The translations under genes were made by a program, and so were the position numbers. From the NCBI RefSeq assembly GCF_002887595.1, contig NZ_PEBU01000010.1, forward strand, positions 124,001 through 188,000: a stretch of DNA of 64,000 bases, given 5' to 3'. How positions within the stretch are numbered: the stretch's first letter is position 1; the number at the start of each line of letters is the position of its first letter. Below are positions 20,203-34,733 of this stretch, piece by piece. Under the pieces are notes generated by a model. It did no database searches and was not told the origin of the DNA. It saw only the letters and a program-made list of their open reading frames with translations. Origin of the DNA: Bowmanella denitrificans. GTDB taxonomy: Bacteria > Pseudomonadota > Gammaproteobacteria > Enterobacterales > Alteromonadaceae.

Positions 20203-21108
20203 ATGATTCCAAACTATCAGGCATTGATGCGCCCTATCCTGGAATCCGCACGTTCAGGCGAGGTTAAACTGAGCCAAGTGATTGAAGAATTGGCTAATAC
20301 GCTTGGTTTGTCAGAGGAAGAAAAGTCTGAGCTTCTTCCAAGCGGCAAACAAACTGTATTAGCAAACCGCGTTGGTTGGGCCAAAACCTATCTAGCCAAA
20401 GCGGGCTTACTTGAAGCAACCAGACGCGGGCATTTTCAGATTTCAGCAAGAGGGCTACTAGCTCTTGAAGAAAGCAACGCTTGCATAGATGCTGATTACT
20501 TAAAGCAATTTGAAGAATTCCAAACATTTCTAGCAACTAAGAATGAACCAGGATCGGGGCAAACAGCTAGCGAAGCTGATCAAGAAATCACCCCTGATGA
20601 AGCCTTAAGAGCTGCGTTTAAACTTATTAATCAAGCCCTGATATCAGAGTTATTGGAACGCACGCGCAAAGTCACGCCAGCGTTTTTTGAACATCTGTTA
20701 GTCGAACTCCTGCTAGCCATGGGCTACGGTGGCAGTGGTGAAGGTGCAGCTCATGCGTTAGGTCGAACTGGTGATAACGGCGTAGATGGGGTCATCAACC
20801 AAGACCCGTTGGGGGTGGATCAGATTTATCTTCAAGCCAAGCGCTATGCAGAAGGCAACAACGTTAGCGCCGGGGATATACGCGACTTTTTCGGCGCACT
20901 TAACTTAAAAAAAGCCCAGAAAGGTATATTCATTACTACCTCGGATTTTACCCAATCGGCCACCCAAACCGCCAAAGATCTAGGCAGCCGTATTGTGCTG
21001 ATTAACGGCAACGAACTCGCCAAGCTAATGCTACGCTACAACATCGGTTGTCGCGAAGAACAGGTGTTGTCGTTAAAGAAAATCGACGAAGAGTTTTTTG
21101 AGATCTAA
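20203..21108 (+). CDS. mrr: Mrr-type restriction endonuclease
   Basis: The 301 residues match Mrr, a type IV-like enzyme that cuts DNA with modified bases. The N-terminal winged-helix part reads LSEEEKSELLPSGKQTVLANRVGWAKTYL (about 41-70). The C-terminal nuclease domain has FEHLLVELLLAMGYGGSG, then the PD-(D/E)XK core GDNGVDGVI and IYLQAKRY (about 188-213). The ATG at 20203 starts the conserved MIPNYQALMRP block. hsdR begins 14 bases after the stop, so it is the first gene of the restriction operon. The complete motif suggests an active enzyme. Confidence 0.92.
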   Translation: MIPNYQALMRPILESARSGEVKLSQVIEELANTLGLSEEEKSELLPSGKQTVLANRVGWAKTYLAKAGLLEATRRGHFQISARGLLALEESNACIDADYLKQFEEFQTFLATKNEPGSGQTASEADQEITPDEALRAAFKLINQALISELLERTRKVTPAFFEHLLVELLLAMGYGGSGEGAAHALGRTGDNGVDGVINQDPLGVDQIYLQAKRYAEGNNVSAGDIRDFFGALNLKKAQKGIFITTSDFTQSATQTAKDLGSRIVLINGNELAKLMLRYNIGCREEQVLSLKKIDEEFFEI

Positions 21109-21122
21109 GGAAGCATTGAGCC

Positions 21123-23906
21123 ATGGAAATCGACGGACTCAAACCAGAAACCAAAGCCAGATTGTCTATCGACGAGCAGTTAAAGCAAGCAGGTTGGGCT
21201 GTTCAGACCTGGCCGAATACTAACTTGGGGGAGTCGCTAGGCGTAGCCGTACGGGAATATCCAACAGATAGCGGTCCGGCGGATTACATTCTGTTTGTAA
21301 ACCGTATCCCCGTCGGGGTGATGGAAGCTAAAAAAGACCAGAGCATATTAACGGCCGCCGAATCGCAAACACTAAGATACGCGACCAGTAAGTTAAAGCA
21401 TTTTCCGGAACACAAGCCTAAGCCTTTTTTGTTTCAGGCCACTAGCCAGATGATTCAGTTTACAGATTTGCGCGATCCTGCCCCGCGCTCGCGCGAAATC
21501 TTTTACTTTTTCAAGCCAGAAACCTTACTGCGCTGGTACAACGAACCTGAATCGACCCGCCATAAGCTGTTTAGCGCCATGCCAGAATTAGATATCGAAG
21601 GGTTGCGCGATTGCCAAGTATCGGCCATTAAAGGGTTAGAAAAATCACTAGCCGAAAACCGTCCTCGTTCTCTAATTCACATGGCGACCGGCGCAGGTAA
21701 AACTTTTACCGCCATCAATGCCGTGTATCGGCTACTAAATCACGGTGGCGCCAAGCGTATTTTGTTTCTGGTTGATACCCGCAACTTAGGCAAGCAGGCG
21801 CAGCAGGAATTTCACGCTTTTAAACCCAAAGGTAAAGAGAGCTTTTTTCACGAAAGCCATATCGTACAGCGCCTAAACAGCAATACCGTCGACAGTGCAG
21901 CCGAGGTTTGTATCTGCACTATTCAGCGCATGTATTCTATTCTAAGCGGTCAGCCCATTGATGAAAGCGCTGAAGATGCATCACTGTTTGAAGTCAAGCA
22001 AAGTACCAAGCAGCAAAAGTTCGTGCAGTACAACCCCGCAGTGCCCATTGAAACCTTTGATTTTATTATTATCGACGAATGCCACCGCTCCATTTACAAC
22101 CTGTGGAAGCAAGTACTGGATTACTTTGATGCCTTCCTGATTGGTTTAACTGCGACACCAGATAAACGCACCTACGGCTTTTTTAACGAAAACATCGTGG
22201 CCGAATACAGCTATGAAGATTCGGTGTTGGATGGAGTCAACGTTGGGTACGACGTATATGAGATTGATACCAAAATTACCCAGGCCGGTGAGAAGTTAAA
22301 GGCTAAGGAATGGGTAGATCATCGAGATAAACTCACCCGCAAAAAACGCTGGGCGCAAACGGAAGAGGAAACCAATTACAGCGCTAAGGAATTAGATCGT
22401 TCCGTGGTAAACAAAAGCCAAATCCGTAAGGTGATCCAGGCCATGAAAGAAGCCGTGGAAAGCAAAATCTTCCCAAATAGGGCAGAGGTACCAAAGACCT
22501 TAATCTTCGCCAAAACCGACAGCCACGCCGATGACATTATCCAAATGGTGCGCGAGGTCTACGGCCAAGGGAACGACTTTTGCCAAAAGGTTACTTATGG
22601 CGCCAAAGACCCAGACGCCGTGCTCAGTGATTTTCGCAATGAATTTAACCCGCGTATTGCCGTTACTGTTGATATGATTGCCACAGGCACCGACGTAAAG
22701 CCGCTAGAAGTACTGCTGTTTATGCGTGATGTGCGTAGCAAAGGCTACTACGAACAAATGAAAGGCCGCGGGGTACGCAGTTTAAGTTTTGAGGAGCTGC
22801 ACCGCATCAGTAAAAGCGCCACCAATGCCAAAGACCGTTTTATTCTGATTGATGCTGTAGGAGTGGAAAAGTCACTTAAAACCGAAAGCCGCTCTTTAGA
22901 AGCCAACCCCAGCTTGCCACTTAAAGACTTACTCCAAGGTGTTGCTATGGGGCATCGGGACAATGACACCATACAAACCCTGGCCAACCGTTTAATTCGC
23001 CTGACCAAACAAGCCGATACAAAAGCCTTAAGCAAAATTGAGAATATTACCGGCCACAGTGTTCAGCAATTAGCAAAAAGCTTGCTGTTAGCCATCGATC
23101 CAGATGCCATTAATCAACAAGCCTTAGCCAATACTAAAGCCGCCGGTATCACCAGAGGCGAAGAGACTTTGACCGAGCAAGAGCGGCAAACCGCGCGTGA
23201 CCAACTGGTTAGCCAAGCTTGTGCGCCTTTTGATAATCCCAAACTACGCGAACAGGTCGCCAATGCGCGGCGGGAAAGAGAGCAGCTTATCGACCATATT
23301 AATCTCGATGAGCTGCTCGTCTCGGATTTTAGCGAACAAGCTGTCGCCAATGCCGAGCAAGCCGTGCAAGACTTCCGTAGCTTTATCGAACAGCATAAAG
23401 ACGAAATTCAGGCCCTAAGCTTTTTCTATCAGCAGCCCTACCAGCGCCGAACATTAACCTACGACATGATTGAAGCGCTGCACCAACAGCTACAACAACC
23501 GCCGTTAATGTTAACCACAGAAAGACTGTGGAACGCCTACAGCCGTATTCAACCGGATAAGACCAAAGGCCAAAACCAAAAGCGCCAGCTGACCGATATC
23601 CTCGCGTTGGTAAAATTTGCCATAGGCCTCGATAGCGAACTAAAACCTTTTGCAGAGCAGGTAGACAGCAAATTTAAGCAATGGATCTTCCGCCATAACG
23701 CCCAGCGCAAAGCCGTATTTACGCCGGAACAAACCGAATGGTTGCGCTTAATAAAAGACCACATTGCTGCCAATGCAGGAATTGAGCGCGATGATTTTGA
23801 CTACAGCCCCTTTGCCGATAAAGGCGGCCTACAAAAGGCCTGGGGCCTTTTTGAACATGAATTAGATAGCATTATGAATGAGATTAATCAGGAGTTGGTG
23901 GCGTGA
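21123..23906 (+). CDS. hsdR: type I restriction enzyme, R (motor and nuclease) subunit
   Basis: The 927-residue protein translocates and cuts DNA not protected by the cognate methyltransferase. In order it has an N-terminal nuclease domain with ADYILFVNRIPVGVMEAKK (about 52-71), Walker A MATGAGKTFTAI (about 187-198), DECH in FIIIDECHRSIYNLW (about 315-330), LTATPDKRTYG, motif VI with MKGRGVRS, and a long C-terminal region that probably contacts HsdM, of the EcoEI type. The stop overlaps the GTG start of hsdS. No frame break is seen. Confidence 0.94.
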   Translation: MEIDGLKPETKARLSIDEQLKQAGWAVQTWPNTNLGESLGVAVREYPTDSGPADYILFVNRIPVGVMEAKKDQSILTAAESQTLRYATSKLKHFPEHKPKPFLFQATSQMIQFTDLRDPAPRSREIFYFFKPETLLRWYNEPESTRHKLFSAMPELDIEGLRDCQVSAIKGLEKSLAENRPRSLIHMATGAGKTFTAINAVYRLLNHGGAKRILFLVDTRNLGKQAQQEFHAFKPKGKESFFHESHIVQRLNSNTVDSAAEVCICTIQRMYSILSGQPIDESAEDASLFEVKQSTKQQKFVQYNPAVPIETFDFIIIDECHRSIYNLWKQVLDYFDAFLIGLTATPDKRTYGFFNENIVAEYSYEDSVLDGVNVGYDVYEIDTKITQAGEKLKAKEWVDHRDKLTRKKRWAQTEEETNYSAKELDRSVVNKSQIRKVIQAMKEAVESKIFPNRAEVPKTLIFAKTDSHADDIIQMVREVYGQGNDFCQKVTYGAKDPDAVLSDFRNEFNPRIAVTVDMIATGTDVKPLEVLLFMRDVRSKGYYEQMKGRGVRSLSFEELHRISKSATNAKDRFILIDAVGVEKSLKTESRSLEANPSLPLKDLLQGVAMGHRDNDTIQTLANRLIRLTKQADTKALSKIENITGHSVQQLAKSLLLAIDPDAINQQALANTKAAGITRGEETLTEQERQTARDQLVSQACAPFDNPKLREQVANARREREQLIDHINLDELLVSDFSEQAVANAEQAVQDFRSFIEQHKDEIQALSFFYQQPYQRRTLTYDMIEALHQQLQQPPLMLTTERLWNAYSRIQPDKTKGQNQKRQLTDILALVKFAIGLDSELKPFAEQVDSKFKQWIFRHNAQRKAVFTPEQTEWLRLIKDHIAANAGIERDDFDYSPFADKGGLQKAWGLFEHELDSIMNEINQELVA

Positions 23907-25657
23907 GTGAGAAGTTAGAAGCGTTGCCACGGGGGTGGTTTGAAGTTCAGTTATATGAAGCAATTGACATTCACGATTATGAACGTCAGCCGGTTAATAA
24001 TTCTGAGCGTAACAGTAGAATTGAGGGTAAAACTACAGAGAGTCTATATCCTTATTATGGAGCCACTGGCCAAGTTGGTTGGATTGATGACTACCTTTCC
24101 AATGAAGACTCAGTTTTACTCGGTGAAGATGGCGCCCCATTTTTGGACCCATATAAGGATAAAGCTTATTTGGTCGCTGGGAAGTACTGGGTTAATAATC
24201 ATGCCCACATATTGCGAGGCCATAAAAATCTAGTTAACAACAAGTTCATATGCTATCAACTAAACATCCTAGATTATGCAGATTTTGTATCTGGAACTAC
24301 GAGATTAAAATTAACCAAGTCTGCTCTAGAGAAACTCCCTTTTCGCATATGCCCGCATAGAGAGCAGTCACGCATAGTTGAAAAACTCGAAGAGTTGCTA
24401 TCCGATCTTGATAACGGCGTAGAAGAACTAAAAGCCGCACAAACCAAACTTACTCAGTATCGCCAGTCGCTGCTAAAAAGTGCGGTAGAAGGCAGCTTAA
24501 CCGAGCAATGGCGCGAGGAAAATGCCGTTACCATCACCGAAACCGGCGAGCAATTGCTGGAGCGTATCCTTAAAGAACGTCGCAGCCGCTGGGAAACACA
24601 AAAACTCGCCGAGTTTAAAGCCAAAGGCCAAACACCACCGAAAAACTGGCAGGATAAATACCCTGAACCCGTGCAGCCAGATACCAGTGAGTTACCCGAA
24701 CTACCTGAAGGTTGGGTTTGGGCCAGTTTGGATATGCTGATAAGCAGCATTGAGGCGGGGAAAAGTTTCAAATGCCTGGAACGGCACCCAGTATATGATG
24801 AATATGGTGTTGTTAAAGTCAGCGCAGTGACATGGGGGGAATATGATGAACTAGAGAGTAAAACCTGCACTCGCAAAGATTATGAGAACGACAGCGTATT
24901 GATTAAGCAAGGGGACTTCCTTTTCTCCAGAGCAAATACGACAGAACTTGTTGGTGCGTGCGTTATAGCTGAGAGGGTCACAAAAAAAATAATGCTCAGC
25001 GATAAAATCCTGAGAATTAATTTTATTGAAGACTCAATAAAGTACTGGTTATTACAATTTCTTAGAAGTCAATGGGGGCGTCAACAAATAGAGGCAGCTG
25101 CCAGTGGTAACCAAGCTTCAATGAAAAATATATCGCAAGGAAAGCTGAAAGGGTTCACTGTGCCATTGCCATCAAAAGATGAGATTTACAAAGTAGAAGG
25201 AGATCTCTTTAGTGCATTTGAAAATATACAAAAAAGTAGCGCTGAAGCAGAAATAACCCAAAGAACTTTGTTGGCTCAGAGGAAAAATATCCTAAAAGAT
25301 GCCTTTGCCGGTAAGTTGGTCCCGCAAGATCCCAATGATGAGCCCGCTAGTGTGTTGCTAGAAAAGATACAGGCCGAACGCGCTGAGCGAGCCAAGCTGG
25401 CTAAGTCAAAACCTAAAGCCGCTAAAAAAAAAGCCGGTAGTCGAGTAACCATCATGGACAAGTTAGAAAATGTACTAAAAAACAAAGACGATTGGATGGA
25501 TGCACAAGAAGCCTTTAAAGCCTGTGGTGTCACTGATGGAACAGATACCGATCGTATTGAAGAGCTTTATGCTGAACTGCGAAGATTAGACCAAGCAGGT
25601 CGGCTGGAAGTTGAGCGACACGGCAACTACGACATGATCAAACTAAAAGGCGAATAA
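23903..25657 (+). CDS. hsdS: type I restriction specificity subunit with an extra C-terminal domain
   Basis: HsdS sets the recognition site through two target-recognition domains, here at about residues 1-155 and 270-415, joined by coiled conserved regions (EQSRIVEKLEELLSDLDNG; LLAQRKNILKDAFAGKLVPQ). The 584 residues are long because a lysine-rich linker and a winged-helix-like end (about 510-584, VTIMDKLENVLKNKDDWMDA to NYDMIKLKG) are added. The two recognition domains are clearly more AT-rich than the conserved parts, which suggests domain exchange. The GTG start overlaps the hsdR stop by four bases. The methyltransferase gene is not adjacent; it lies four genes downstream. Confidence 0.93.
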   Translation: MSEKLEALPRGWFEVQLYEAIDIHDYERQPVNNSERNSRIEGKTTESLYPYYGATGQVGWIDDYLSNEDSVLLGEDGAPFLDPYKDKAYLVAGKYWVNNHAHILRGHKNLVNNKFICYQLNILDYADFVSGTTRLKLTKSALEKLPFRICPHREQSRIVEKLEELLSDLDNGVEELKAAQTKLTQYRQSLLKSAVEGSLTEQWREENAVTITETGEQLLERILKERRSRWETQKLAEFKAKGQTPPKNWQDKYPEPVQPDTSELPELPEGWVWASLDMLISSIEAGKSFKCLERHPVYDEYGVVKVSAVTWGEYDELESKTCTRKDYENDSVLIKQGDFLFSRANTTELVGACVIAERVTKKIMLSDKILRINFIEDSIKYWLLQFLRSQWGRQQIEAAASGNQASMKNISQGKLKGFTVPLPSKDEIYKVEGDLFSAFENIQKSSAEAEITQRTLLAQRKNILKDAFAGKLVPQDPNDEPASVLLEKIQAERAERAKLAKSKPKAAKKKAGSRVTIMDKLENVLKNKDDWMDAQEAFKACGVTDGTDTDRIEELYAELRRLDQAGRLEVERHGNYDMIKLKGE

Positions 25658-25662
25658 GGACT

Positions 25663-27393
25663 ATGCGTTTAGCCTCTCTAACCATTGGCTCGGACAAGCC
25701 AGGTGACAAACAGCGGTTTAAAAACCTAAAAAACGTCACCATCGACTTTGATGAAGGTGAATGGATAACGGTCGTTATTGGTTGGAACGGCACGGGAAAA
25801 TCCAATGTTTTGGAAGCCCTGGCAACAATTTTCAGGGATTTAATAGGTAAACCAAAAAATAGACCAACGATTGTCGGTGAGCATTCAGAACCTGAAAAGC
25901 CAGAATTTTCCTATAGGCTGCGCTATTTCTGCCACAACAAAGAAATTGTTGTTGATGCTGATCCTGATCGTTCAACCAAGCTCAGCGAACAATATGAAAT
26001 TAGCTATAAAGCCTTATCCAATAAACAGGAAGATAGCGCTTTACAGACGAGTTTATTTTCTGAAATAGATAGTGATGAATTTCAGTTAGTTAAGTTTTCT
26101 AGGTTCATTCAAGATAGAGATAGTTTCCTTCCAGCATATATTTTTGGTTACTACTCAGGGCATAGCCAAAGGATGCATGATGTCTTTTATCCGTACCTTG
26201 AACGATATGATGATAATTTGAGAAACGGCATAGATCCTGGTTTGCGGAAGATGTTCTATGCCAAGCCCGTGCATAGTCAGTTTACACTATTGGCATTTAT
26301 GCTGAACCAAGAGAGTTTTGTGCAAGAGTTTTTGGAAGAGCATTTTGGTATTGATACGGAAGTTGGTATTGATTCTGTTCTTTTTGTTTTAAATCAGCCT
26401 CCTTGGAAATCTAATGCAGAGGACGGCGATCCTCGTTTTTGGAACTCCCGCGGTGTGGTAAGGGAATTTTTGAGTCGGTTATATGATGTGGCACTGGCAC
26501 CTATCAGAATCAGGAGACGCACTCAAACTAGTCTGTGGAACAAGACAACGCTGGAGTATCTATATCTTTATGTAAAAGACCGTGATGCTCTTAGAGAACT
26601 AGTTGGGAATATGGCCCCAAGAGAGTTTTTTAGGGATTTAGAAAGTACGTATGTCTCTGAACTAATAGAAGAAGTTCGCATTAGGGTAAAGCTCAAAAAT
26701 AATGATGGAACCGTTATCTTTAGGGAGTTAAGTGAAGGGGAGCAACAATTACTTACTGTACTTGGATTACTGCGCTTTACAGCAGAGGAAGAAGGTCTAT
26801 TTCTATTGGATGAACCAGATACCCACCTTAACCCCCAATGGAGTGTCGACTACTTTAAATACCTAAAGATGTTCGTCGCTTCAGGAAAGGGGGGAAGTTC
26901 TAGTCATATTGTACTGAATACTCACAATCCTTTGGCTGTGGCAGAACTTGCCAGAGAACAAGTACAAATCCTTTATCGAGATCCCGAATACCTAAGCATT
27001 ACTTCTCACTTGCCAGAGTTCGATCCAAGAGGAATGGGCTACACAGGCATAGTCACTAGCGATATGTTTGGGTTGCCTTCTTCTGTTGATTCTCGTACTC
27101 AGAGGCGTTTAGAAATATATCGAGTATTGGCCAGCATAAAGATACGTACGAAGTTTCAGGAATTGCGCTTTAAAGTAATCCAGGATTGGTTAGATAAGGA
27201 TAGATTCAAACTTAATCAACGTGATGATGACTATCAACGATATTTAGAAATTCGTACTGAGTTGCTTTCCAGTAAATTTGATGATGACGAATATCAAACC
27301 CTAATTCGGCATGCATTATCTTTAAGCTCAGATGAACGAGAGCGAATAGCTCGTGAAGCTGTTGCCGCTGTGCTCTCGGAGCGAGATTCATGA
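25663..27393 (+). CDS. PtuA-like / restriction-associated AAA ATPase (ABC-type head)
   Basis: The 576 residues have an ABC/SMC-type ATPase: Walker A VVIGWNGTGKSNVLEAL (about 37-53), signature LSEGEQQLLTVL (about 356-367), Walker B GLFLLDEPDTHLNP (about 380-393) and an H-loop NTHNP (about 418). This is the pattern of PtuA in the Septu defence system and of ATPases found inside restriction loci. AAGGA precedes the ATG, five bases after hsdS. The gene overlaps the HNH gene as ATGA. Its AT-rich composition differs from hsdR and yhcG. In Septu the ATPase controls a partner HNH nuclease; that role is inferred from pairing. Confidence 0.88.
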   Translation: MRLASLTIGSDKPGDKQRFKNLKNVTIDFDEGEWITVVIGWNGTGKSNVLEALATIFRDLIGKPKNRPTIVGEHSEPEKPEFSYRLRYFCHNKEIVVDADPDRSTKLSEQYEISYKALSNKQEDSALQTSLFSEIDSDEFQLVKFSRFIQDRDSFLPAYIFGYYSGHSQRMHDVFYPYLERYDDNLRNGIDPGLRKMFYAKPVHSQFTLLAFMLNQESFVQEFLEEHFGIDTEVGIDSVLFVLNQPPWKSNAEDGDPRFWNSRGVVREFLSRLYDVALAPIRIRRRTQTSLWNKTTLEYLYLYVKDRDALRELVGNMAPREFFRDLESTYVSELIEEVRIRVKLKNNDGTVIFRELSEGEQQLLTVLGLLRFTAEEEGLFLLDEPDTHLNPQWSVDYFKYLKMFVASGKGGSSSHIVLNTHNPLAVAELAREQVQILYRDPEYLSITSHLPEFDPRGMGYTGIVTSDMFGLPSSVDSRTQRRLEIYRVLASIKIRTKFQELRFKVIQDWLDKDRFKLNQRDDDYQRYLEIRTELLSSKFDDDEYQTLIRHALSLSSDERERIAREAVAAVLSERDS

Positions 27394-28259
27394 GGTACAT
27401 TGACAACACATTCTTGGAAATACCCGAGGGATGGGATGAGCGAGCGTTAGAGGCAAGTCGGCAGTTGTTGGATGGTGAACGTACAGCGGAGCAGCTAAGT
27501 CAGGTTTGGAGAGTCCTTAAAGCCTGTCTATCTGAAGCATCAAATAGGCGCTGTTGGTATTGTGAAAGCACTATTCATCGTAGTGATAATGCTGTTGATC
27601 ACTACCGGCCTAAAGGCACAGTGAAGACAGGTCGTCTCCTTGAGGACGGCTCTCGAATTGTGGCTATGGAAATCGCCCCTGTTCACCACGGGTACAAATG
27701 GAAGGCCTTCAATTTAGATAACTTTCGTTACTCTTGTGAACATTGCAATGAATATCGTAAGGATCTCGATGGCACCGCAGGCGGTAAGTGGAACTACTTC
27801 CCCTTAGTTCATGAAGAGCGACGAGCATATGATGCTCAGAATGAACGTTTTGAAGTTCCCGTCTTGCTAGACCCCTGTAAAGCTCTCGATTGGCAACTAT
27901 TGTCTTATGATTCAAACGGAAGACCTTTTTCGAGATTTGATAGAGGAACTGAAGAAGACGTTAAAATACGATTTTCCATAAGGCTTTTGCATTTGGATCA
28001 GCAAGGGCTAAATGAGGGGCGGCGTTCCTGTTGGAGTCTTGTAAGTCCAATATTAAGGGATACAAAATACTGGTTTGTAGAGAAGCTAAACGGTAATCCA
28101 GAAGCCGAGCATAATTTTCAAGAAGAGCTGAGAAAGCTAAAACAATGGTTAAATCCAAGGAATCCCGCCACATATATAGGTTTTGTGCGATACAAGCTTC
28201 GAAATGATCGGGACAAAAAAATTCATCCATGGATTGATATGCTCTTGGGTGACATATAG
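27390..28259 (+). CDS. PtuB-like HNH endonuclease
   Basis: The 289 residues carry an HNH-type zinc site: RRCWYCESTIHRSDNAVDHYRPKG (split for length, about 52-75) with CWYC and the DH pair, then NFRYSCEHCNEYRK with a second CxxC (about 112-126). This is the arrangement of PtuB and related nucleases that pair with an ABC-type ATPase. Its start overlaps the ATPase stop (ATGA) and its TAG overlaps the yhcG GTG by one base. No reverse transcriptase is nearby, so it is not a retron. Degradation of invader DNA or other nucleic acid is inferred from the family. Confidence 0.86.
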   Translation: MRYIDNTFLEIPEGWDERALEASRQLLDGERTAEQLSQVWRVLKACLSEASNRRCWYCESTIHRSDNAVDHYRPKGTVKTGRLLEDGSRIVAMEIAPVHHGYKWKAFNLDNFRYSCEHCNEYRKDLDGTAGGKWNYFPLVHEERRAYDAQNERFEVPVLLDPCKALDWQLLSYDSNGRPFSRFDRGTEEDVKIRFSIRLLHLDQQGLNEGRRSCWSLVSPILRDTKYWFVEKLNGNPEAEHNFQEELRKLKQWLNPRNPATYIGFVRYKLRNDRDKKIHPWIDMLLGDI

Positions 28260-29317
28260 TGAAAGATAAGCCTGCACAATTACTACTAACTGAACTCCGC
28301 ACCCTAGTCAACGAAGCCAAGCAACAGGTTTCCGTTGCTGTTAATGCCACCCTCACCGAACTTTACTGGCAAATTGGCCAACGCATTAACCAAGAGGTAC
28401 TTGGCGGCGAGCGGGCCGAGTACGGTAAGCAAATCGTCGCTACACTGGCGCGACAATTGACCCAGGAGTTTGGTAGCGGATTCTCGGAGAAACAACTGCG
28501 GCGTATGATGCAATTTGCTGAAGCTTTTCCCGAAATGAAGAATGTCGCCACACTGTGGCGACAATTAAGCTGGAGTCATTTTAAGCAGCTCATTTCACTA
28601 AAGGAGCCGCTTCAGCGAGAATTCTACGCGCAAATGTGCCGCATAGAGCGTTGGAGCGTTCGCGAGCTGGCCAGCCGTATCGACTCCATGCTTTACCAGC
28701 GCACCGCCTTATCTAAGCAGCCAGAAATGCTGATTAAACAAGAGCTTGGGAAACTAGCACAAAAAGATGCGCTGTCCACTGAGTTGCTACTTAAAGACCC
28801 TTATGTGTTGGACTTTCTGGGACTAACGGATCATTACCTTGAAAAAGATCTTGAAGACGCTATTCTGCGCGACCTTGAGAACTTTCTGTTAGAGCTAGGT
28901 GCGGGCTTTACCTTTATTGCCCGGCAAAAGCGCATCCAGATAGATGATGAAGATTTCTATATAGACCTGCTGTTTTATAATCGCCGTCTTAAGCAGTTGG
29001 TGGCAGTGGACCTGAAGATTGGCGCTTTCAAAGCCCAGTATAAGGGCCAGATGGAGCTTTACCTGCGTTGGTTAGACAAACATGAACGTCAGCCAGATGA
29101 AGAACCACCACTGGGAATTATTCTTTGTGCCGAGAAGCGCACCGAGCAAATTGAACTTTTACAGTTGGATGCTACTGGCATCCATGTAGCCGAATATTTA
29201 ACCGTACTCCCCGAGCGCCAGTTGCTGCACGAGCGACTGCAACGGGCCATAGATACCGCACAAAAGAAGTATGTGGAGCAGAAAAGTTCTGTCCCACATT
29301 TGGATGATAAGAGATGA
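28259..29317 (+). CDS. YhcG/DUF1016 family PD-(D/E)XK nuclease
   Basis: The 352 residues have an N-terminal DUF1016 helical domain (ATLTELYWQIGQRINQEVL; FGSGFSEKQLRRMMQFAEAF) and a C-terminal nuclease core IDDEDFYIDLLFYNRRLKQL followed by VAVDLKIGAFKAQYKGQM (about 227-262), the D...DxK pattern. YhcG proteins are common beside type I restriction genes and have been proposed to be nucleases or Holliday-junction-like resolvases. The GTG start overlaps the HNH stop by one base, and the end overlaps hsdM as ATGA, so it is firmly in the operon. Confidence 0.9.
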   Translation: MKDKPAQLLLTELRTLVNEAKQQVSVAVNATLTELYWQIGQRINQEVLGGERAEYGKQIVATLARQLTQEFGSGFSEKQLRRMMQFAEAFPEMKNVATLWRQLSWSHFKQLISLKEPLQREFYAQMCRIERWSVRELASRIDSMLYQRTALSKQPEMLIKQELGKLAQKDALSTELLLKDPYVLDFLGLTDHYLEKDLEDAILRDLENFLLELGAGFTFIARQKRIQIDDEDFYIDLLFYNRRLKQLVAVDLKIGAFKAQYKGQMELYLRWLDKHERQPDEEPPLGIILCAEKRTEQIELLQLDATGIHVAEYLTVLPERQLLHERLQRAIDTAQKKYVEQKSSVPHLDDKR

Positions 29318-30849
29318 ATGCTGCAACCTTAGTACAAAAAGTTTGGAACTATTGCCATACCCTTCGCGATGACGGCGTAGGTTATGGAGATTATCTGGAG
29401 CAGCTAACCTATCTGCTATTCCTGAAAATGGCCCATGAATATGCCCAGCCTCCTTACCAGCGCGATACCAAAGTACCCCAGGAATATAGTTGGATTACCT
29501 TACTGGATAAGACTGGCGAGAAACTGGAGAACCATTACCGTAAGGCCCTCAAAGAACTCGGCAGCGAGATGGGTATGCTGGGCGCTATCTTCTATAAGTC
29601 GGAAAATAAGATCCCCGACCCCGCCAAGTTGGCGCGCATTATCAAGATGATCGATGAAGAAAATTGGATCAGCTTGGAGATAGACGCCAAAGGCGACTTA
29701 TATGAAGGCCTATTGCAGAAAAACGCCGAAGATACCAAAAGCGGCGCCGGCCAATACTTTACTCCTCGCCCGTTAATTGATGCCATCGTCGCCTGTGTAC
29801 AGCCAGAACCTAAGAAGACTATTGCCGATCCAGCTTGTGGGACGGGTGGGTTCTTTTTAAGCGCTCATGATTGGATTGCCTACGGCGACCCAGATTGGAT
29901 TCAAAAGGAATATACCCATTGGAACCCCAATAAAGGGGCTCAGGGCGTTGAAGTTAAGAGCAAACTGGATAAAAGCAAAGCCAGCTTTCTGCGTGATAAC
30001 ACTTTTTTTGGTAATGAAATCGTTCCCTCTACCCGCCGCTTATGTTTGATGAACCTCTTTCTGCATAACATCGGCAGTATTGATGGAGAACCCGAAGTAG
30101 AGCGGGCTGATGCGCTATTGAACAAGCCAAGCCAGTATGTGGATTATGTGCTAGCTAACCCGCCCTTTGGTAAAAAGAGTAGCTTAACCATCACCAATGC
30201 TGAAGGCGGCACAGATAAAGATACGCTGACCTATGAACGACAGGATTTTTGGGCTACCACCACCAACAAACAGCTGAACTTTTTACAGCATATTGTCACC
30301 ATGCTTAAAGATACGGGCAAAGCAGCTGTGGTACTGCCTGATAACGTATTATTTGAAGGTGGCGTAGGTGAGCGTATCCGCCGTAAATGGTTGGAGACTT
30401 GTAACGTACATACCATCTTGCGCCTGCCCACCGGCATCTTTTACGCCAATGGTGTAAAGGCCAATGTGGTGTTCTTTGATAATGCGCCTCGTGATGGCAA
30501 GACTCATACAAAGGGTATCTGGTTTTATGACCTGCGAACCAATAAACACTTTACCCTAAAGCAACGTCCCTTGGTTTTGGCCGATTTGAAGGACTTTATC
30601 GACTGCTACCATATGCAGCCAAGGAAAGAATCTGAGCGATTTAAATTTTACAAATATGCCGACTTAGTGGCGAGAGACAAAGCCAGCTTGGACATCTTTT
30701 GGCTAAAAGATGATAGCTTAGATAACCTCGACAACCTTCCACCGCCAGACATATTGCAGCAGGAGATCATTGACCACCTGGAAGCGGCATTGGCTGCATT
30801 TAGGGATGTGGCTGCCGGATTGCCATCTTCTACTGCGAATTCAGAATAA
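29314..30849 (+). CDS. hsdM: type I restriction-modification methyltransferase subunit
   Basis: The 511-residue protein is an N6-adenine methyltransferase working with HsdS. The N-terminal helical domain is present (NYCHTLRDDGVGYGDYLEQLTYLLFLKM). The SAM-binding motif is ADPACGTGGFFLSAHDWI (about 170-188) and the catalytic motif is ANPPFGKKS (about 280-289). A four-base overlap joins it to yhcG. It is unusual that hsdM lies at the far end from hsdR and hsdS, with three genes between. All key motifs are intact, so the system is probably active. Confidence 0.94.
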   Translation: MNAATLVQKVWNYCHTLRDDGVGYGDYLEQLTYLLFLKMAHEYAQPPYQRDTKVPQEYSWITLLDKTGEKLENHYRKALKELGSEMGMLGAIFYKSENKIPDPAKLARIIKMIDEENWISLEIDAKGDLYEGLLQKNAEDTKSGAGQYFTPRPLIDAIVACVQPEPKKTIADPACGTGGFFLSAHDWIAYGDPDWIQKEYTHWNPNKGAQGVEVKSKLDKSKASFLRDNTFFGNEIVPSTRRLCLMNLFLHNIGSIDGEPEVERADALLNKPSQYVDYVLANPPFGKKSSLTITNAEGGTDKDTLTYERQDFWATTTNKQLNFLQHIVTMLKDTGKAAVVLPDNVLFEGGVGERIRRKWLETCNVHTILRLPTGIFYANGVKANVVFFDNAPRDGKTHTKGIWFYDLRTNKHFTLKQRPLVLADLKDFIDCYHMQPRKESERFKFYKYADLVARDKASLDIFWLKDDSLDNLDNLPPPDILQQEIIDHLEAALAAFRDVAAGLPSSTANSE

Positions 30850-30859
30850 GGGCATGTAA

Positions 30860-31828
30860 ATGCACGATTTGGTGAAATGGATTTCCCAAGCAGAACCTGT
30901 ACTTAGCGCAATTTCAGCGGGTATTGCTATTGTGCTGGCGCTATGGGGCGTGGCAAAGGCCGCACCTAAAGTTGTGAAGAATTTCACAGGTCGAACTAAG
31001 CAAGCTACTTCGCATTTACCCTATACTGTTGCCCAGCGCTTCGTTGCATTGTTCGAGTCACACGGCGTAAAACGAAATCAGATAACTGGGTTTTTTGGGC
31101 ATGATTTAACTATCGGAAAATTGGCGACAGATGAGGAACTGACCAATCATCTAACCCCAGAAATTCTCAAGGATGCAGCGTTACTGTTTGGCGTAAACCA
31201 AGATTGGCTGGAAGGAGCTTCTGAGACGATTTATGAGGTTAAGGATTTTTATAAGCATCCCGAAGATTTTGAGTACTTTCTGCAACATTTCTTGAACAGA
31301 AAAGATAAGTTTTTCTGCTATGTGTTGAATGCTCAGTATGAGACTGCAAAAAACAACCAATATGACGGCATTATCCTATTGGAAGAAACCATTGCTGAAA
31401 TAAATGGGCGGCCAGTTTATCGGTACCATTTCTGCGGAAAGTGGCTTATGGGTTATTGGAAGTCCAGGGGTTACCTAGCAGCTTGCTGTGCACTATTATT
31501 CAAATATGGATTTCATCCCATTGGCAAAAATGTTTCTCAGACTTGGTTAGTGGAAGTTACCAATGGCACTCAACTAATGCAGTATGACTATGAGTCTCCA
31601 GGCTTGGCTCTTACTCACACAGCAACCTGGTATGTTGATGAATTTATTGAGAAACCAGACCGGTACTTACAAGGTGTAGATCCTGAAATGGACAAGTTCG
31701 GTTTTAAAGCCGCACTAAGTCTATGGTTGGAACTAAGTCAGAAAGGGTATATGGATTGCTTCAATGACGGCACCCATCAAAAATTGATACATACATTTAA
31801 AAAGAAGCTATTAGAGCTTAATAAATAA
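30860..31828 (+). CDS. unknown membrane-anchored protein, last gene of the restriction operon
   Basis: I do not recognise this 322-residue protein. It has one N-terminal membrane segment (about 17-35, AISAGIAIVLALWGVAKAA), a basic patch, then a region resembling a Cro/C1-type helix-turn-helix (VAQRFVALFESHGVKRNQIT to LKDAALLFGVNQDWLEGAS, about 56-115), and a C-terminal domain without known motif. AAGGG lies upstream and the start is only 10 bases after hsdM. The composition is AT-rich, like the ptu-like pair. A membrane-tethered sensor or effector of the defence operon is possible but unproven. Confidence 0.75.
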   Translation: MHDLVKWISQAEPVLSAISAGIAIVLALWGVAKAAPKVVKNFTGRTKQATSHLPYTVAQRFVALFESHGVKRNQITGFFGHDLTIGKLATDEELTNHLTPEILKDAALLFGVNQDWLEGASETIYEVKDFYKHPEDFEYFLQHFLNRKDKFFCYVLNAQYETAKNNQYDGIILLEETIAEINGRPVYRYHFCGKWLMGYWKSRGYLAACCALLFKYGFHPIGKNVSQTWLVEVTNGTQLMQYDYESPGLALTHTATWYVDEFIEKPDRYLQGVDPEMDKFGFKAALSLWLELSQKGYMDCFNDGTHQKLIHTFKKKLLELNK

Positions 31829-31927: not shown

Positions 31928-32902
31928 ATGAGCCAGATTCTGCTTTGCAACCAATCCTTAAACCCTCAAAACCTGCTGTATCAATGCGGTATCAGCATTG
32001 ATCGTATCTCTACAGTCAGTTGTGCGCGGCCCGATGTGATGGCCGCCAATATGCCGTATTTGCTGGACGAGGATAACGCCAGCCATAGCCGCAGTATGCT
32101 TGATCAGCTTTCGCCCAAGCCGGTGGCGGAAGAGTTGACCCGGCTGTCTTTGTCCTTGGGGGGCGATAATGTGGTGGCCCTGGCAGATATCAGGGCGAAA
32201 CTGCATGAATACAACGTGGGCCTGATGGGGGCGTCGACCAGCGTCTATGCCGACCGTATTGGTGGCTTTGCCAAGTCGGTACAAAATTATCAAGCGGCCC
32301 TGATGGAATACCGAAAAGCCATTGAAACCAGCTCTCCATTGCGCTCTGCCTTAAAACAAAAAGCCCATATGGCCCACCAGGCAATGCAGCGCCAATTCGG
32401 CAATGAACTTAATGCCGTCACCGCGCAGGTACGCTCCAACCGCGGAACACCGCTTTCCAATCCCAACCGGGCAACAAATATCGCCAGAAGCAGCCGCAAT
32501 GTGGCTAAACTCAATGTCAGCAGCCAGATTCAGGCCAATAACCTGGTGAAGCTGGCCAAGCACGCCAAACTACTGGGCAACGGTCTGGCCGTTATTGATT
32601 TTGGCAGCCGCGTAGGCAATGTGCATAACACCTATCAGGCCGGCGGCCATTGGGAGCGTGAGTTGTTTATTGAATCGAGTAGTTTTGCTGCCAGTGCCTT
32701 AACAGGAACGGCTGTTGTAAGTGCTGGAAGTACAGCTTTAGGCATACTCATAGTTGCAACTCCAGTTGGTTGGGTTGGATTAATAATTGGTGGAATCGCA
32801 GTAGCAGGAGCCGCAGCTGGTGCATCAATTTGGGTAAATGGGCAGATGAAGGAAAACAGTGGCGGGTGGTATGACGATATTATGAAATGGTTGGGGCTTT
32901 GA
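31928..32902 (+). CDS. candidate membrane-disrupting toxin (T6SS effector-like)
   Basis: The 324 residues have a soluble helical N-terminal part (about 1-200), then GNGLAVIDFGSRVGNVHNTY and a long glycine/alanine-rich hydrophobic region (about 256-298, with LGILIVATPVGWVGLIIGG). There is no signal peptide. The layout resembles the Tme type of type VI secretion effectors that insert in membranes; this is recalled, not checked. AGGA precedes the ATG. Two related small membrane-protein genes follow directly, as immunity genes do. No secretion genes are in the window. Confidence 0.6.
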   Translation: MSQILLCNQSLNPQNLLYQCGISIDRISTVSCARPDVMAANMPYLLDEDNASHSRSMLDQLSPKPVAEELTRLSLSLGGDNVVALADIRAKLHEYNVGLMGASTSVYADRIGGFAKSVQNYQAALMEYRKAIETSSPLRSALKQKAHMAHQAMQRQFGNELNAVTAQVRSNRGTPLSNPNRATNIARSSRNVAKLNVSSQIQANNLVKLAKHAKLLGNGLAVIDFGSRVGNVHNTYQAGGHWERELFIESSSFAASALTGTAVVSAGSTALGILIVATPVGWVGLIIGGIAVAGAAAGASIWVNGQMKENSGGWYDDIMKWLGL

Positions 32903-33276
32903 TGCCAAGTTTATCGTCGCTCTTGGCAGTTGCTGCTGCCATAGGCTTTTTCAGTTTAATTTTATTTGTCATCTTTGGTCAGCTTACCGTTAGAAAGCTG
33001 AGAAAAGATCCTATCACCAAAAATGAACTTGGCATGGAATATGTGAGTGGCTGGGACATTATCAACATTGCTCAAGCATTAACTCTGCCTTCTTCCTGGA
33101 GTGAAAAACTCAGTAAGAGCCAAATATCTTTTCTGTATGCCAATGCTGCACTTATTAAGCAGCATACGAACAAGCTGGATAAAGTCGTGGGCATGATGTT
33201 TTACATTTCGCTAATGACCTCTGGGCTATCCATGGCGCTATTGGCGCTGCTTGATACGTTGGGTTTTTTTGACTAG
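32902..33276 (+). CDS. small membrane protein, first of two paralogous immunity candidates
   Basis: The 124 residues have two hydrophobic segments, one near each end (LLAVAAAIGFFSLILFVIFG; GMMFYISLMTSGLSMALLAL), and a soluble middle with GWDIINIAQALTLPSSWSEKL. The ATG at 32902 overlaps the toxin TGA by one base and has GGGG upstream; an in-frame ATG at 32887 is possible. About half the residues equal the next protein (LTVRKLRKDP/ITVRKLRKNP, SGWDI, NIAQAL/NVAQAL). The position and form fit an immunity protein against a membrane toxin. Confidence 0.65.
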   Translation: MPSLSSLLAVAAAIGFFSLILFVIFGQLTVRKLRKDPITKNELGMEYVSGWDIINIAQALTLPSSWSEKLSKSQISFLYANAALIKQHTNKLDKVVGMMFYISLMTSGLSMALLALLDTLGFFD

Positions 33277-33301
33277 TCGTACATAACTTTTCTGGACTGA
33301 G

Positions 33302-33673
33302 ATGATGAACGACCAGATATTTGCATTTTCAATGCTTGGGGTATTTATTACCTGCATTTTGTTTGTGCTATTTGGCCAGATTACCGTACGCAAGCTACGA
33401 AAGAACCCACAAACTAAAGATCAACTGGGTGTCGAGTTTGCCAGTGGCTGGGATATTCTGAATGTTGCTCAGGCACTTGCCCTGCCAAAAAGCTGGAGCA
33501 GGAAACTCGAAAGCAGCCCTTTATCAGGGTTATATGCTAAGTCAGAGTTACTTAGAAAAAACACTACCTTATTTGACCGCATACTGGCGAGGATTTTTTG
33601 GTATTCCTACGTTGTTTCCGGCACTGGCCTGATTCTGATGGTGATATTGAATTTGTTTGGCGTCTTTGACTGA
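33302..33673 (+). CDS. small membrane protein, second paralogous immunity candidate
   Basis: The 123 residues are the duplicate of the preceding protein: two terminal membrane segments (SMLGVFITCILFVLFGQ; YVVSGTGLILMVILNLF) and the shared core ITVRKLRKNP, SGWDILNVAQALALP, KSWSRKLES. The start is one of two adjacent ATGs at 33302. It lies 25 bases after the first copy. Duplication of immunity genes can protect against toxin variants of other strains; this is inference. Confidence 0.65.
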   Translation: MMNDQIFAFSMLGVFITCILFVLFGQITVRKLRKNPQTKDQLGVEFASGWDILNVAQALALPKSWSRKLESSPLSGLYAKSELLRKNTTLFDRILARIFWYSYVVSGTGLILMVILNLFGVFD

Positions 33674-33822: not shown

Positions 33823-34359
33823 CTACTCCAGGGTAAATCTGTCGCCAAAGATTTTCTTCAGGCGGTCATCCGGATCATAAAGCCTGACCTGGCTGGCATC
33901 CCATCGGTAAATCACCAGGTTGACGCCAGATTTCATGGTATAAGATGGCACCAGAATGCCGCTGGCCAGGTTTTCTTCCACAACCATCCGCGCCAACAAC
34001 TGCCCCCGGGATTGCTGCTTCTTTACCTGCAGAATGCGCCAGTTCTGTTTAAAAAACTCATCATCTTGTGAAAAATCCAATACCCGGGGCAGATCAACCT
34101 GGTAGCTACATAGGGTAAAAGGTTCTATCAAGCCGGAGGCCGTGGGTTTAACCACTTCGCTGTAGGCCGTCATCAGGTCACAGGCGGTATAAAACGCGTC
34201 CAGTCCTTTGGGATTAAAACGCCCACCGGTTAAGGCGGCACCTGCTGTACTAAGGGGGCTGAATGACCACAGCGGATTGTGGACACGAAACACCACCTGT
34301 TTAAATGGCTTGGCGGGGAGCTTGCTGTTTAACAGTTTCCTTACTGTCGGGATTGTCAT
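33823..34359 (-). CDS. RES-domain toxin (NAD-degrading family)
   Basis: The 178 residues match the RES toxin family, which depletes NAD+ by phosphorolysis or hydrolysis. Key stretches are QVVFRVHNPLWSFSP with the conserved arginine, then GGRFNPKGLDAFYTACDLMTAYSE, which carries the arginine, tyrosine and glutamate of the active site (about 45-70), and LVIYRWD near the end. The ATG overlaps the antitoxin stop (ATGA), so the two are coupled. Confidence 0.9.
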   Translation of the reverse strand: MTIPTVRKLLNSKLPAKPFKQVVFRVHNPLWSFSPLSTAGAALTGGRFNPKGLDAFYTACDLMTAYSEVVKPTASGLIEPFTLCSYQVDLPRVLDFSQDDEFFKQNWRILQVKKQQSRGQLLARMVVEENLASGILVPSYTMKSGVNLVIYRWDASQVRLYDPDDRLKKIFGDRFTLE

Positions 34360-34733
34360 TCAAAGCCGCCAAGTTCCTTGGAAGTAATAAAGTCCTGCAC
34401 GGCAGATACGCCGTCATTCCCATACAGCTTAATGGTCTCGGCGGCGGTCAGGCCATTTAAAGATGGAATGGGTTTGCCGACATACCAGGCCCAGGCCTCC
34501 AGGTCGGAATTAAACCATGGGCGCACTCTGGTCAGAATGGCTTTAACGTCCACTAAGCGGGTTTGTACTTTCGGACTGCTTAACCTGACCTGCTTGGTTA
34601 GCGACTGCATGGGAATATCCATATACCTGGACAATTGCTCAACCGTAACACCAATACCCTCGGCCAGGGCTCTGGGATTCACCAAACCCGCTGAACTCAC
34701 TGCAGCCGTATTGCTTGTTGAATCTGCATGCAT
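34356..34733 (-). CDS. Xre/MbcA/ParS-type antitoxin with DUF2384 domain
   Basis: The 125 residues have an N-terminal DNA-binding helical domain (LAEGIGVTVEQLSRYMDIPM, SLTKQVRL) and a C-terminal toxin-binding DUF2384 region (PWFNSDLEAWAWYVGKPIPS, LTAAETIKLYGNDGVSAVQDF). It neutralises the RES toxin encoded next and likely represses the promoter upstream at 34734 onward. The order, antitoxin first with a four-base overlap, is the usual one. An AAAAATAGGTCG stretch lies just upstream, with no clear ribosome site. Confidence 0.87.
   Translation of the reverse strand: MHADSTSNTAAVSSAGLVNPRALAEGIGVTVEQLSRYMDIPMQSLTKQVRLSSPKVQTRLVDVKAILTRVRPWFNSDLEAWAWYVGKPIPSLNGLTAAETIKLYGNDGVSAVQDFITSKELGGFE

What the first reader, a model, noticed from the sequence alone, without database searches (positions are those of the whole stretch)
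20203..31828. Restriction operon with embedded Septu-like pair, YhcG nuclease and a membrane-anchored terminal gene
Eight genes run in one direction with overlaps or gaps of 15 bases or less: mrr, hsdR, hsdS, PtuA-like ATPase, PtuB-like HNH nuclease, yhcG, hsdM and an unknown gene. The methyltransferase is separated from its specificity subunit by three nuclease-type genes, so one transcript would make modification enzyme and up to four nuclease activities (Mrr, HsdR, HNH, YhcG). The order is unusual and suggests a compound defence system where methylation status may license the ATPase/HNH pair. Gene identities are read from motifs; joint function is inference.
Basis: partly seen in the sequence, partly recalled or inferred. 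Interest (0 to 1): 0.8.

Follow-up and report, generated by a model that had tools for sequence, protein, structure and literature searches.

The report
Septu pair docked on restriction enzyme
A bacterial DNA-restriction operon carries inside it an ATPase and nuclease pair known from the Septu anti-phage system, and comparison with relatives suggests that the pair is attached to the DNA-reading subunit by an added winged-helix tail, so that one machine may read methylation marks and fire a second weapon.

Summary
The eight genes are present as described. The exact order was seen in no other locus read, but its middle is a widespread unit. Of the 80 best PtuB relatives in genome contigs (of 210), 74 lie in type I hsd loci; in 71 of the 74, hsdS directly precedes the ATPase gene or is fused to it, across 13 named phyla. 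Six loci encode one HsdS-PtuA protein. HsdS of PtuAB loci ends in an extra winged-helix domain: 78 of 81, 37-38 of 41 held-out, 0 of 33 controls. The tail varies with PtuA; the HsdS segment before it varies with HsdM. hsdR is seen in 37 of 74 loci, absent in 24, undetermined in 13; 11 of the 24 genomes gave no HsdR by two probes. Best reading: PtuAB is an effector tethered to the M2S complex by the HsdS tail, beside HsdR here, without it elsewhere. Mrr, YhcG and the last gene are sporadic extras; the hsdS-hsdM gap is also a general cargo slot. Coupling is inferred from sequence alone.

The parts
20203..21108 (+). mrr: Mrr-type (type IV-like) restriction endonuclease, accessory; 301 aa
   Evidence: Pfam Mrr_cat 116.2 bits, Mrr_N 99.6 bits; QAKRY at 211; seen in 11 of 78 hsd-linked loci
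21123..23906 (+). hsdR: type I restriction/translocase subunit; optional in the wider family; 927 aa
   Evidence: HSDR_N, ResIII, EcoEI_R_C; GAGKT, DECH, EAKK; seen in 37, absent in 24, undetermined in 13 of 74 relatives
23903..25657 (+). hsdS: type I specificity subunit, 584 aa, two target-recognition regions
   Evidence: Methylase_S 61.8 bits; PADLOC Specificity_I 288.9 bits
25415..25462 (+). predicted flexible linker of HsdS, residues 505-520
   Evidence: pLDDT under 50 over residues 505-517 in the AlphaFold model
25463..25654 (+). HsdS C-terminal winged-helix tail, residues 521-584: proposed PtuA docking domain
25663..27393 (+). ptuA: Septu-type ABC/SMC-like ATPase, 576 aa
   Evidence: PADLOC PDLC00302 724.5 bits; GWNGTGKS at 40, LSEGEQQ at 356, LLDEPDTH at 381
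27390..28259 (+). ptuB: HNH nuclease partner, 289 aa
   Evidence: PADLOC PDLC00330 283.9 bits; CxxC pairs at 55 and 116, DH at 70-71; D70, H71 and N120 invariant in 77 of 77 hsd-linked PtuB
28259..29317 (+). yhcG: DUF1016/PD-(D/E)XK nuclease, sporadic cargo; 352 aa
   Evidence: YhcG_C and DUF1016_N; in 4 of 78 hsd-linked loci
29314..30849 (+). hsdM: type I N6-adenine methyltransferase subunit, 511 aa
   Evidence: N6_Mtase 226.7 bits, HsdM_N; NPPF at 282, DPACGTGG at 172
30860..31828 (+). unknown gene, 322 aa, N-terminal hydrophobic stretch; sporadic
   Evidence: no Pfam, PADLOC or NCBIfam match at E 0.01; relatives seen only in L036 (hsd locus) and in G772 = L151/L178

Best explanation
This is a type I restriction-modification operon whose specificity subunit carries a dedicated docking tail for a Septu-type PtuA-PtuB effector. 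HsdM and HsdS read and methylate a target sequence. A winged-helix domain at the end of HsdS, on a flexible linker, holds the ABC-type ATPase PtuA, which in turn holds the HNH nuclease PtuB. The DNA-bound M2S complex therefore controls PtuAB. Within this reading I think it most likely (about 0.45) that meeting unmodified target DNA fires PtuAB directly, so that it acts as a restriction effector beside HsdR here and instead of HsdR in R-less relatives. Next (about 0.3) is that PtuAB is kept silent by the complex and released when a phage disables it, as PrrC is. Mrr, YhcG and the last gene are extra cargo. Shown by sequence: conserved gene unit, fusions, pair-specific tail in the sets examined, tail-PtuA covariation, optional hsdR. 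Inferred: physical docking, trigger and substrate.
For: 74 of 80 best relatives are hsd-linked and 71 of these have hsdS next to or fused to ptuA; hsdS-ptuA gap at most 25 bases in 70 of 72 separate pairs. Six natural HsdS-PtuA fusions, Methylase_S in the first half and AAA_21 in the second in 6 of 6, one clade on the PtuA tree (SH-aLRT 100, quick tree). Tail in 78 of 81 linked HsdS, 37-38 of 41 held-out against 0 of 33 controls; in the fusions the tail region lies between the HsdS and PtuA parts (by eye). Tail modelled as a winged helix behind a disordered linker. Tail distances follow PtuA (rho 0.62; partial 0.59 given HsdM), hardly HsdM (partial 0.07 given PtuA); the 75 residues before the tail do the reverse (0.12 and 0.51). 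hsdR seen in 37, absent in 24 of 74; 11 of the 24 R-less genomes have no HsdR by two probes. HsdM NPPF motif in 72 of 72, incl. 22 of 22 R-less. HNH residues D70, H71, N120 in 77 of 77.
Against: No binding, methylation or phage test exists. The tail adjoins ptuA on the DNA, so joint transfer alone would give tail-PtuA covariation; the HsdS body as a whole also keeps some correlation with PtuA (partial 0.32 given HsdM) and the tail a little with HsdM (0.07, p 0.036) and the HsdS body (0.15). Other cargo sits in the same slot without such a tail. TgvAB in a Vibrio type I operon protects without HsdR activity (PMC11411939, passages). HsdM of PtuAB loci are not one clade (11 changes against 19.9 shuffled). 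The scan query was built from hsd-linked proteins and only the best 80 of 210 hits were read. L020 has hsdS next to ptuA but no recognised tail. The SAM-site pattern of HsdM is missing by a relaxed pattern in 4 of 72, 2 of them R-less. Diversified target regions in R-less loci rest on few pairs, and L093/L097 do not show it. Many R-less genomes are drafts. The winged helix is a very common fold.
Confidence: 0.67

Rival explanations
1. Independent cargo: PtuAB is an ordinary Septu system that shares the transcript and the slot between hsdS and hsdM but acts on its own, as TgvAB does in the Vibrio cholerae VPI-2 type I operon.
For: Relatives of this HsdM carry other defence genes in the same slot: AbiD, patatin plus cyclase (CBASS type), DarT-DarG, Fic, Schlafen AlbA_2, PDC-S18. 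TgvAB works without HsdR activity (PMC11411939, passages). PtuAB occurs beside at least two HsdM types.
Against: TgvAB alone is reported 17 times more frequent than the embedded form (same paper; it also says that tgvAB alone protected 10 to 100 times less against several phages than the whole cluster, which the authors ascribe to expression), whereas this PtuAB clade is hsd-linked in 74 of the 80 best hits. Cargo does not explain a pair-specific HsdS tail or HsdS-PtuA fusions.
Confidence: 0.2
2. PrrC-like guard (a variant of the docking reading with another trigger, so the odds overlap with it): the M2S complex keeps PtuAB silent; a phage anti-restriction factor releases it and PtuAB aborts the infection, perhaps by cutting a tRNA as reported for retron-Eco7 PtuAB.
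For: PrrC170 lies in the same slot, listed as HsdR, HsdS, PrrC and HsdM; retron-Eco7 PtuAB leads to depletion of tRNA-Tyr, directly or indirectly (both PMC11555353, passages). PrrC is sequestered in the type I complex and released on T4 infection (PMC3874165, passages). PrrC170 has an ABC-ATPase domain, as PtuA does.
Against: 24 of 74 loci have no hsdR in the stored stretch and 11 of these genomes none by two probes, so there is often no restriction enzyme to guard, while the HsdM NPPF motif is kept.
Confidence: 0.3
3. Neutral neighbourhood: conserved adjacency reflects only joint transfer of defence genes, with no functional link.
For: These are mobile defence genes; hsdR state changes at least 15 times on the PtuA tree, and Mrr and YhcG come and go.
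Against: Immediate adjacency in 13 phyla, fusions, and a tail with a sharp change of covariation inside one polypeptide.
Confidence: 0.06

Closest known systems
Septu (PtuA-PtuB), type I of PADLOC
   Same: Strong PADLOC matches of both proteins, gene order ptuA-ptuB, HNH and ATPase motifs
   Different: Not a stand-alone pair: inside an hsd operon, directly after or fused to hsdS; 7 of the 9 solo homologues in the tree lie outside this clade
EcoprrI with PrrC / PrrC170 (type I operon with embedded anticodon nuclease)
   Same: ABC-type ATPase effector in the hsdS-hsdM slot of a type I operon (PMC11555353 and PMC3874165, passages)
   Different: Effector is an ATPase plus an HNH protein, not an anticodon nuclease of the PrrC family; hsdR often missing; HsdS tail and fusions
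TgvAB embedded in the VPI-2 type I operon; RloF of Campylobacter
   Same: Second nuclease system between hsd genes (PMC11411939, passages)
   Different: DUF262/GmrSD family, reported mostly outside that five-gene operon and active without HsdR activity
Retron type I-A (Ec78, Ec83) effectors PtuA-PtuB
   Same: Same kind of effector pair, there neutralised within a retron (PMC11555353, passages)
   Different: No reverse transcriptase among the ten proteins scanned; retron PtuA and PtuB equivalog models score 40.1 and 27.4 bits against cut-offs of 500 and 150
HNH linked to OLD-type ABC ATPases near BREX genes
   Same: ATPase-HNH dyad beside another modification system (PMC12839542, passages)
   Different: BREX, not type I hsd; whether those ATPases are of this PtuA clade was not tested
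MADS (methylation-associated defence system)
   Same: HsdM/HsdS-like proteins with an ATPase (weak matches to MAD2, MAD3, MAD5)
   Different: All far below the model cut-offs (117.5 of 720; 24.1 of 420; 50.8 of 400 bits)

Membership tests
Type I restriction-modification | HsdR, HsdM and HsdS encoded together with intact motifs | tested here: met
   Pfam above cut-offs; motifs
Type I restriction-modification | Methylates a bipartite target and restricts unmodified DNA | not testable with these tools
   needs methylome sequencing and plating tests
Septu | PtuA ATPase and PtuB HNH genes side by side | tested here: met
   PADLOC 724.5 and 283.9 bits, 4-base overlap
Septu | Stand-alone two-gene defence unit | tested here: not met
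   embedded here; of the 80 best relatives 74 hsd-linked, 4 solo, 2 without a PtuA ORF on the contig. So it is Septu-like in its parts, not filed as canonical Septu
PrrC/EcoprrI-type guard system | Effector gene in the hsdS-hsdM slot of a type I operon | tested here: met
   gene order; PrrC170 gene list from PMC11555353
PrrC/EcoprrI-type guard system | Anticodon-nuclease (PrrC) effector protein | tested here: not met
   Pfam and the PADLOC rows shown name AAA_21/PtuA and PtuB, no PrrC (PADLOC lists were cut at 25 rows)
PrrC/EcoprrI-type guard system | Effector released by an anti-restriction factor | not testable with these tools
   needs expression with Stp or Ocr
Retron type I-A | Reverse transcriptase and msDNA beside ptuAB | tested here: not met
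   no reverse transcriptase among the ten proteins scanned; retron PtuA/PtuB equivalog cut-offs not reached; msDNA not searched
MADS | MAD proteins above NCBIfam equivalog cut-offs | tested here: not met
   MAD2 117.5 of 720, MAD3 24.1 of 420, MAD5 50.8 of 400 bits

The most novel reading that the evidence does not exclude
HsdM-HsdS-PtuA-PtuB is a distinct class of restriction system, found without hsdR in several phyla, in which a winged-helix tail of the specificity subunit recruits an SMC-like ABC ATPase, much as a kleisin docks on an SMC head, and the ATPase/HNH pair replaces the HsdR motor-nuclease as the methylation-licensed effector; the window holds a form that has kept or gained hsdR as well.
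Probability: 0.35. Interest if true: 0.88.

Novelty: new variant of a known kind. Interest (0 to 1): 0.72.

Why it matters
Embedded defence genes are readily explained by shared transcription. Here one polypeptide, HsdS, has a body that varies with the methyltransferase and a tail that varies with the embedded effector, and in some cyanobacteria and acidobacteria the two are fused. That gives a concrete, testable interface through which a restriction enzyme could command a second, unrelated effector. It would also explain why some type I methyltransferase loci have no HsdR: they may not be orphan methylases but complete restriction systems with another effector. PADLOC models name the parts of such a locus separately as 'type I' and 'Septu', so the link is easily missed.

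Tried and rejected
Eight-gene order as a conserved unit: rejected; no other of the 78 hsd-linked loci has Mrr, YhcG and the last gene together. Last gene as part of the core: rejected; seen in 2 of 59 relative genomes counting the window's own and in 1 other hsd locus (L036). In L178 it follows two genes that my models labelled HsdS and HsdM; I do not trust these labels. Promoters and terminators: at chance level. HsdM as the partner with which PtuAB travels: not borne out, the HsdM tree is mixed. Loss of zinc cysteines as a sign of dead PtuB in hsdR-carrying loci: not borne out, fewer than four cysteines in 9 of 38 with and 7 of 33 without hsdR, and in 6 of 6 fusion loci. Two long PtuA homologues with SIR2-like additions (L075, L086) first looked like HsdS fusions by length; they are not. 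Dropped rows: near-copies L118, L023, L024, L053 and rows with under 350 PtuA residues (among them L051, L090, L075, L086, L104) from the PtuA tree; 6 of 30 control loci gave no usable HsdS ORF and 5 only ORFs of at most 250 aa. A Foldseek 'pdb' search of the tail could not be run; VIA-align was used. The kleisin likeness is one of many tied winged-helix rows and only a lead. Prior art: paper searches listed no paper that I saw describing PtuAB inside hsd operons or an HsdS-PtuA fusion; most listings were capped and only passages of ten papers were read. Three likely sources are not held (Li 2024; Krishnan 2020; the Payne 2024 preprint), so an earlier mention cannot be excluded.
Full report
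What is there. The eight genes of the finding exist at the stated coordinates, on one strand, with spacers between -4 and +14 bases. Family searches give Mrr, HsdR, HsdS, PtuA, PtuB, YhcG/DUF1016 and HsdM; the last gene has no match. Expected motifs are present (their meaning is recalled). GC content falls to 41% around the PtuA gene, in line with a foreign origin, which I did not test. Promoter and terminator pattern counts equal chance, so a single transcript is plausible from the overlaps but not shown.

How I looked for relatives. PtuB homologues are rare: 2 of 369 class genomes including the window's own, and 12 of 398 phylum genomes with the PADLOC PtuB model at E 1e-15. Of 17 plasmid records with a hit I opened four; all four had hsdS directly before ptuA and hsdM beside them. 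An alignment of seven PtuB proteins was scanned against the species genomes of genome contigs: 210 relatives, best 80 kept with up to 10 kb flanks; four loci came from viral contigs, three of them R-S-A-B-M (two alike) and one solo.

The core unit. Of the 80 loci, 74 are hsd-linked, 4 have PtuAB alone (L075, L086, L092, L104) and 2 have no PtuA ORF (L057, L077). In 71 of the 74, hsdS immediately precedes ptuA or is fused to it; the exceptions are L051 (contig end), L082 and L090. HsdM is seen in 72 of 74: upstream 36, downstream 35, both sides 1. The hsdS-ptuA gap is at most 25 bases in 70 of 72 separate pairs, plasmid, viral and window loci included. Thirteen named phyla are represented, one archaeal. 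On the PtuA tree of 87 rows (78 linked or fused, 9 solo; quick method) linked against solo needs 3 changes (solo label shuffled: mean 8.7); solo rows L035 and L092 fall at or in the linked part, the other seven outside, several on long branches. The query was itself hsd-linked and only the best 80 of 210 were read, so this describes one clade of Septu proteins, not Septu as a whole.

Fusions. Six loci, four cyanobacterial (L073, L083, L085, L089) and two acidobacterial (L087, L110), encode one protein of 1078-1157 aa with HsdS followed by a complete PtuA. Pfam finds Methylase_S in the first half and AAA_21 in the second in 6 of 6. They form one clade on the PtuA tree (SH-aLRT 100), yet the cyanobacterial and acidobacterial ones sit beside different HsdM types.

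Covariation. In 61 loci (no fusion among them) tail distances follow PtuA (Spearman 0.62) and PtuB (0.53) more than HsdS body (0.37) or HsdM (0.25). Partial correlations: tail-PtuA 0.59 given HsdM and 0.55 given the HsdS body; tail-HsdM 0.07 given PtuA (p 0.036); tail-HsdS body 0.15 given PtuA (p 0.005); HsdS body-HsdM 0.50 and, against a clean split, HsdS body-PtuA 0.32 given HsdM. Thinning to 20 or 28 loci keeps tail-PtuA at 0.49. The 75 residues just before the tail do the opposite of the tail: 0.51 with HsdM given PtuA, 0.12 with PtuA given HsdM. So HsdS looks like a chimera whose body belongs with HsdM and whose tail belongs with PtuAB. Joint transfer of tail-ptuA-ptuB as a cassette would give the same pattern; but a cassette that includes the end of another protein still points to function.

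HsdR is optional. It is seen somewhere in the stored stretch in 37 loci, absent with at least 8 kb on both sides in 24, undetermined in 13. Its state changes at least 15 times on the PtuA tree (64 loci, 40 with, 24 without). A whole-genome search with TIGR00348 finds no HsdR in 12 of the 24 R-less genomes while 6 of 6 positive genomes ring; in the other 12 it finds one, some only weakly. With the window's HsdR as a second probe 11 of those 12 stay empty (L062's genome has a 793-aa hit) and 4 of 4 positives ring. Many genomes are drafts. L041, a close relative with S-A-B-YhcG-M, has transporter-like genes where hsdR would be (by eye). One E. coli genome of 5426 carries M-S-PtuA-PtuB with no hsdR annotated in the 20-kb stretch, near an integrase gene, with the tail (E 1.7e-30). 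HsdM keeps the NPPF motif in 72 of 72 (22 of 22 R-less, plasmid L019 among them); a relaxed SAM-site pattern is missing in L058, L066, L091 and L113. Between close pairs the target-recognition regions mostly differ strongly while tail, PtuA and HsdM stay alike (40 of 90 pairs listed). Of pairs with both members firmly R-less, L084/L100 differ in one of two regions and L093/L097 in neither; R-less L041 and L056 differ from hsdR-carrying kin. So site-specific recognition may matter without HsdR, on thin evidence.

The slot. HsdM relatives in class genomes show that the hsdS-hsdM gap is a general cargo bay. Of 30 control loci fetched (5 without an HsdM call, others cut by contig ends), 9 have other genes between hsdS and hsdM: AbiD (L154), CBASS-type patatin plus cyclase (L156), DarT-DarG (L159), Fic (L160), a ParA-like pair (L162), a DUF262-like gene by eye (L164), AlbA_2/Schlafen (L165), PDC-S18 (L168) and a different ATPase-HNH pair (L152). 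AbiEii lies directly before hsdM in L172, where no hsdS was called. HsdM of PtuAB loci mix with these on the HsdM tree: 11 changes among 72 and 22 rows, fewer than the shuffled 19.9 but far from one clade; control rows L178 and L179 are very long and doubtful. YhcG (4 of 78 loci) and Mrr (11 of 78) look like extras of this kind.

Comparison with what is known (passages only). PrrC170 was cloned as HsdR, HsdS, PrrC and HsdM, the same slot; retron-Eco7 PtuAB leads to depletion of tRNA-Tyr, whereas PtuAB of an E. [quoted passage not shown] PrrC is sequestered in the EcoprrI complex until T4 infects (PMC3874165; PMC12707154). TgvAB embedded in a Vibrio type I operon acts without HsdR activity and is 17 times more common alone than in that operon (PMC11411939). 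A BREX survey mentions HNH proteins linked to OLD-type ABC ATPases near BREX (PMC12839542). The PADLOC passages list Septu with and without a reverse transcriptase and Hma genes near Septu, none with hsd genes (PMC8565338). The general idea of systems embedded in systems is in print (PMC12255303 and PMC12988326). I saw the exclusive HsdS link, the tail or the fusions in none of the papers looked at; three likely sources are not held.

Verdict. The finding is a conserved HsdM-HsdS(tail)-PtuA-PtuB unit with optional HsdR. I hold physical coupling through the HsdS tail as likely (0.67); which trigger fires PtuAB, and on what substrate, is open.

Noticed in passing
L154, L156, L159, L160, L165, L168 (hsdS-hsdM gap); L172 (directly before hsdM): The gap between hsdS and hsdM in relatives of this HsdM is a cargo bay for abortive-type systems: AbiD, CBASS-type patatin plus cyclase, DarT-DarG, Fic, Schlafen AlbA_2, PDC-S18; AbiEii before hsdM in L172.
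   Followed up: partly
L152:10745-13446 and L169: A different ATPase plus HNH-type pair also follows hsdS (PtuA-like with a PDC-M62B/M01B-like partner in L152; the partner in L169 is cut by the contig stretch and named by eye); the tail was not found on those two HsdS.
   Followed up: partly
L075:7170-10004 and L086:2209-5394: Solo PtuA homologues with long N-terminal additions: SIR2-like regions and, in L086, WD40-like repeats inserted into the ATPase, each followed by a PtuB-like gene (domains named by eye).
   Followed up: no
window 31928-33673: A 324-aa protein with a glycine-rich hydrophobic end followed by two similar small membrane proteins; by eye like a membrane-active effector with two immunity proteins. 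Pfam gave nothing above cut-off for the 324-aa protein and the first small one; the second was not scanned.
   Followed up: partly
window 33823-34733, minus strand: RES-domain protein (PF08808, 72.2 bits) with a small overlapping partner gene without a Pfam match, perhaps a RES/Xre-type toxin-antitoxin pair.
   Followed up: partly
PtuB of L020, L022, L076, L084, L088, L091, L093-L095, L097, L098, L100, L105, L109, L111, L112 and the six fusion loci: Part of the PtuB family has lost zinc-type cysteines, mostly C58 and C119, while D70, H71 and N120 of the HNH stay invariant.
   Followed up: partly
G000:C7:100794-100895 and similar places in related genomes: ORFs of about 100 aa in 12 other genomes of the same order or family give weak partial matches (34 residues, E 3e-6 to 2e-4) to the HsdS tail profile.
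   Followed up: no
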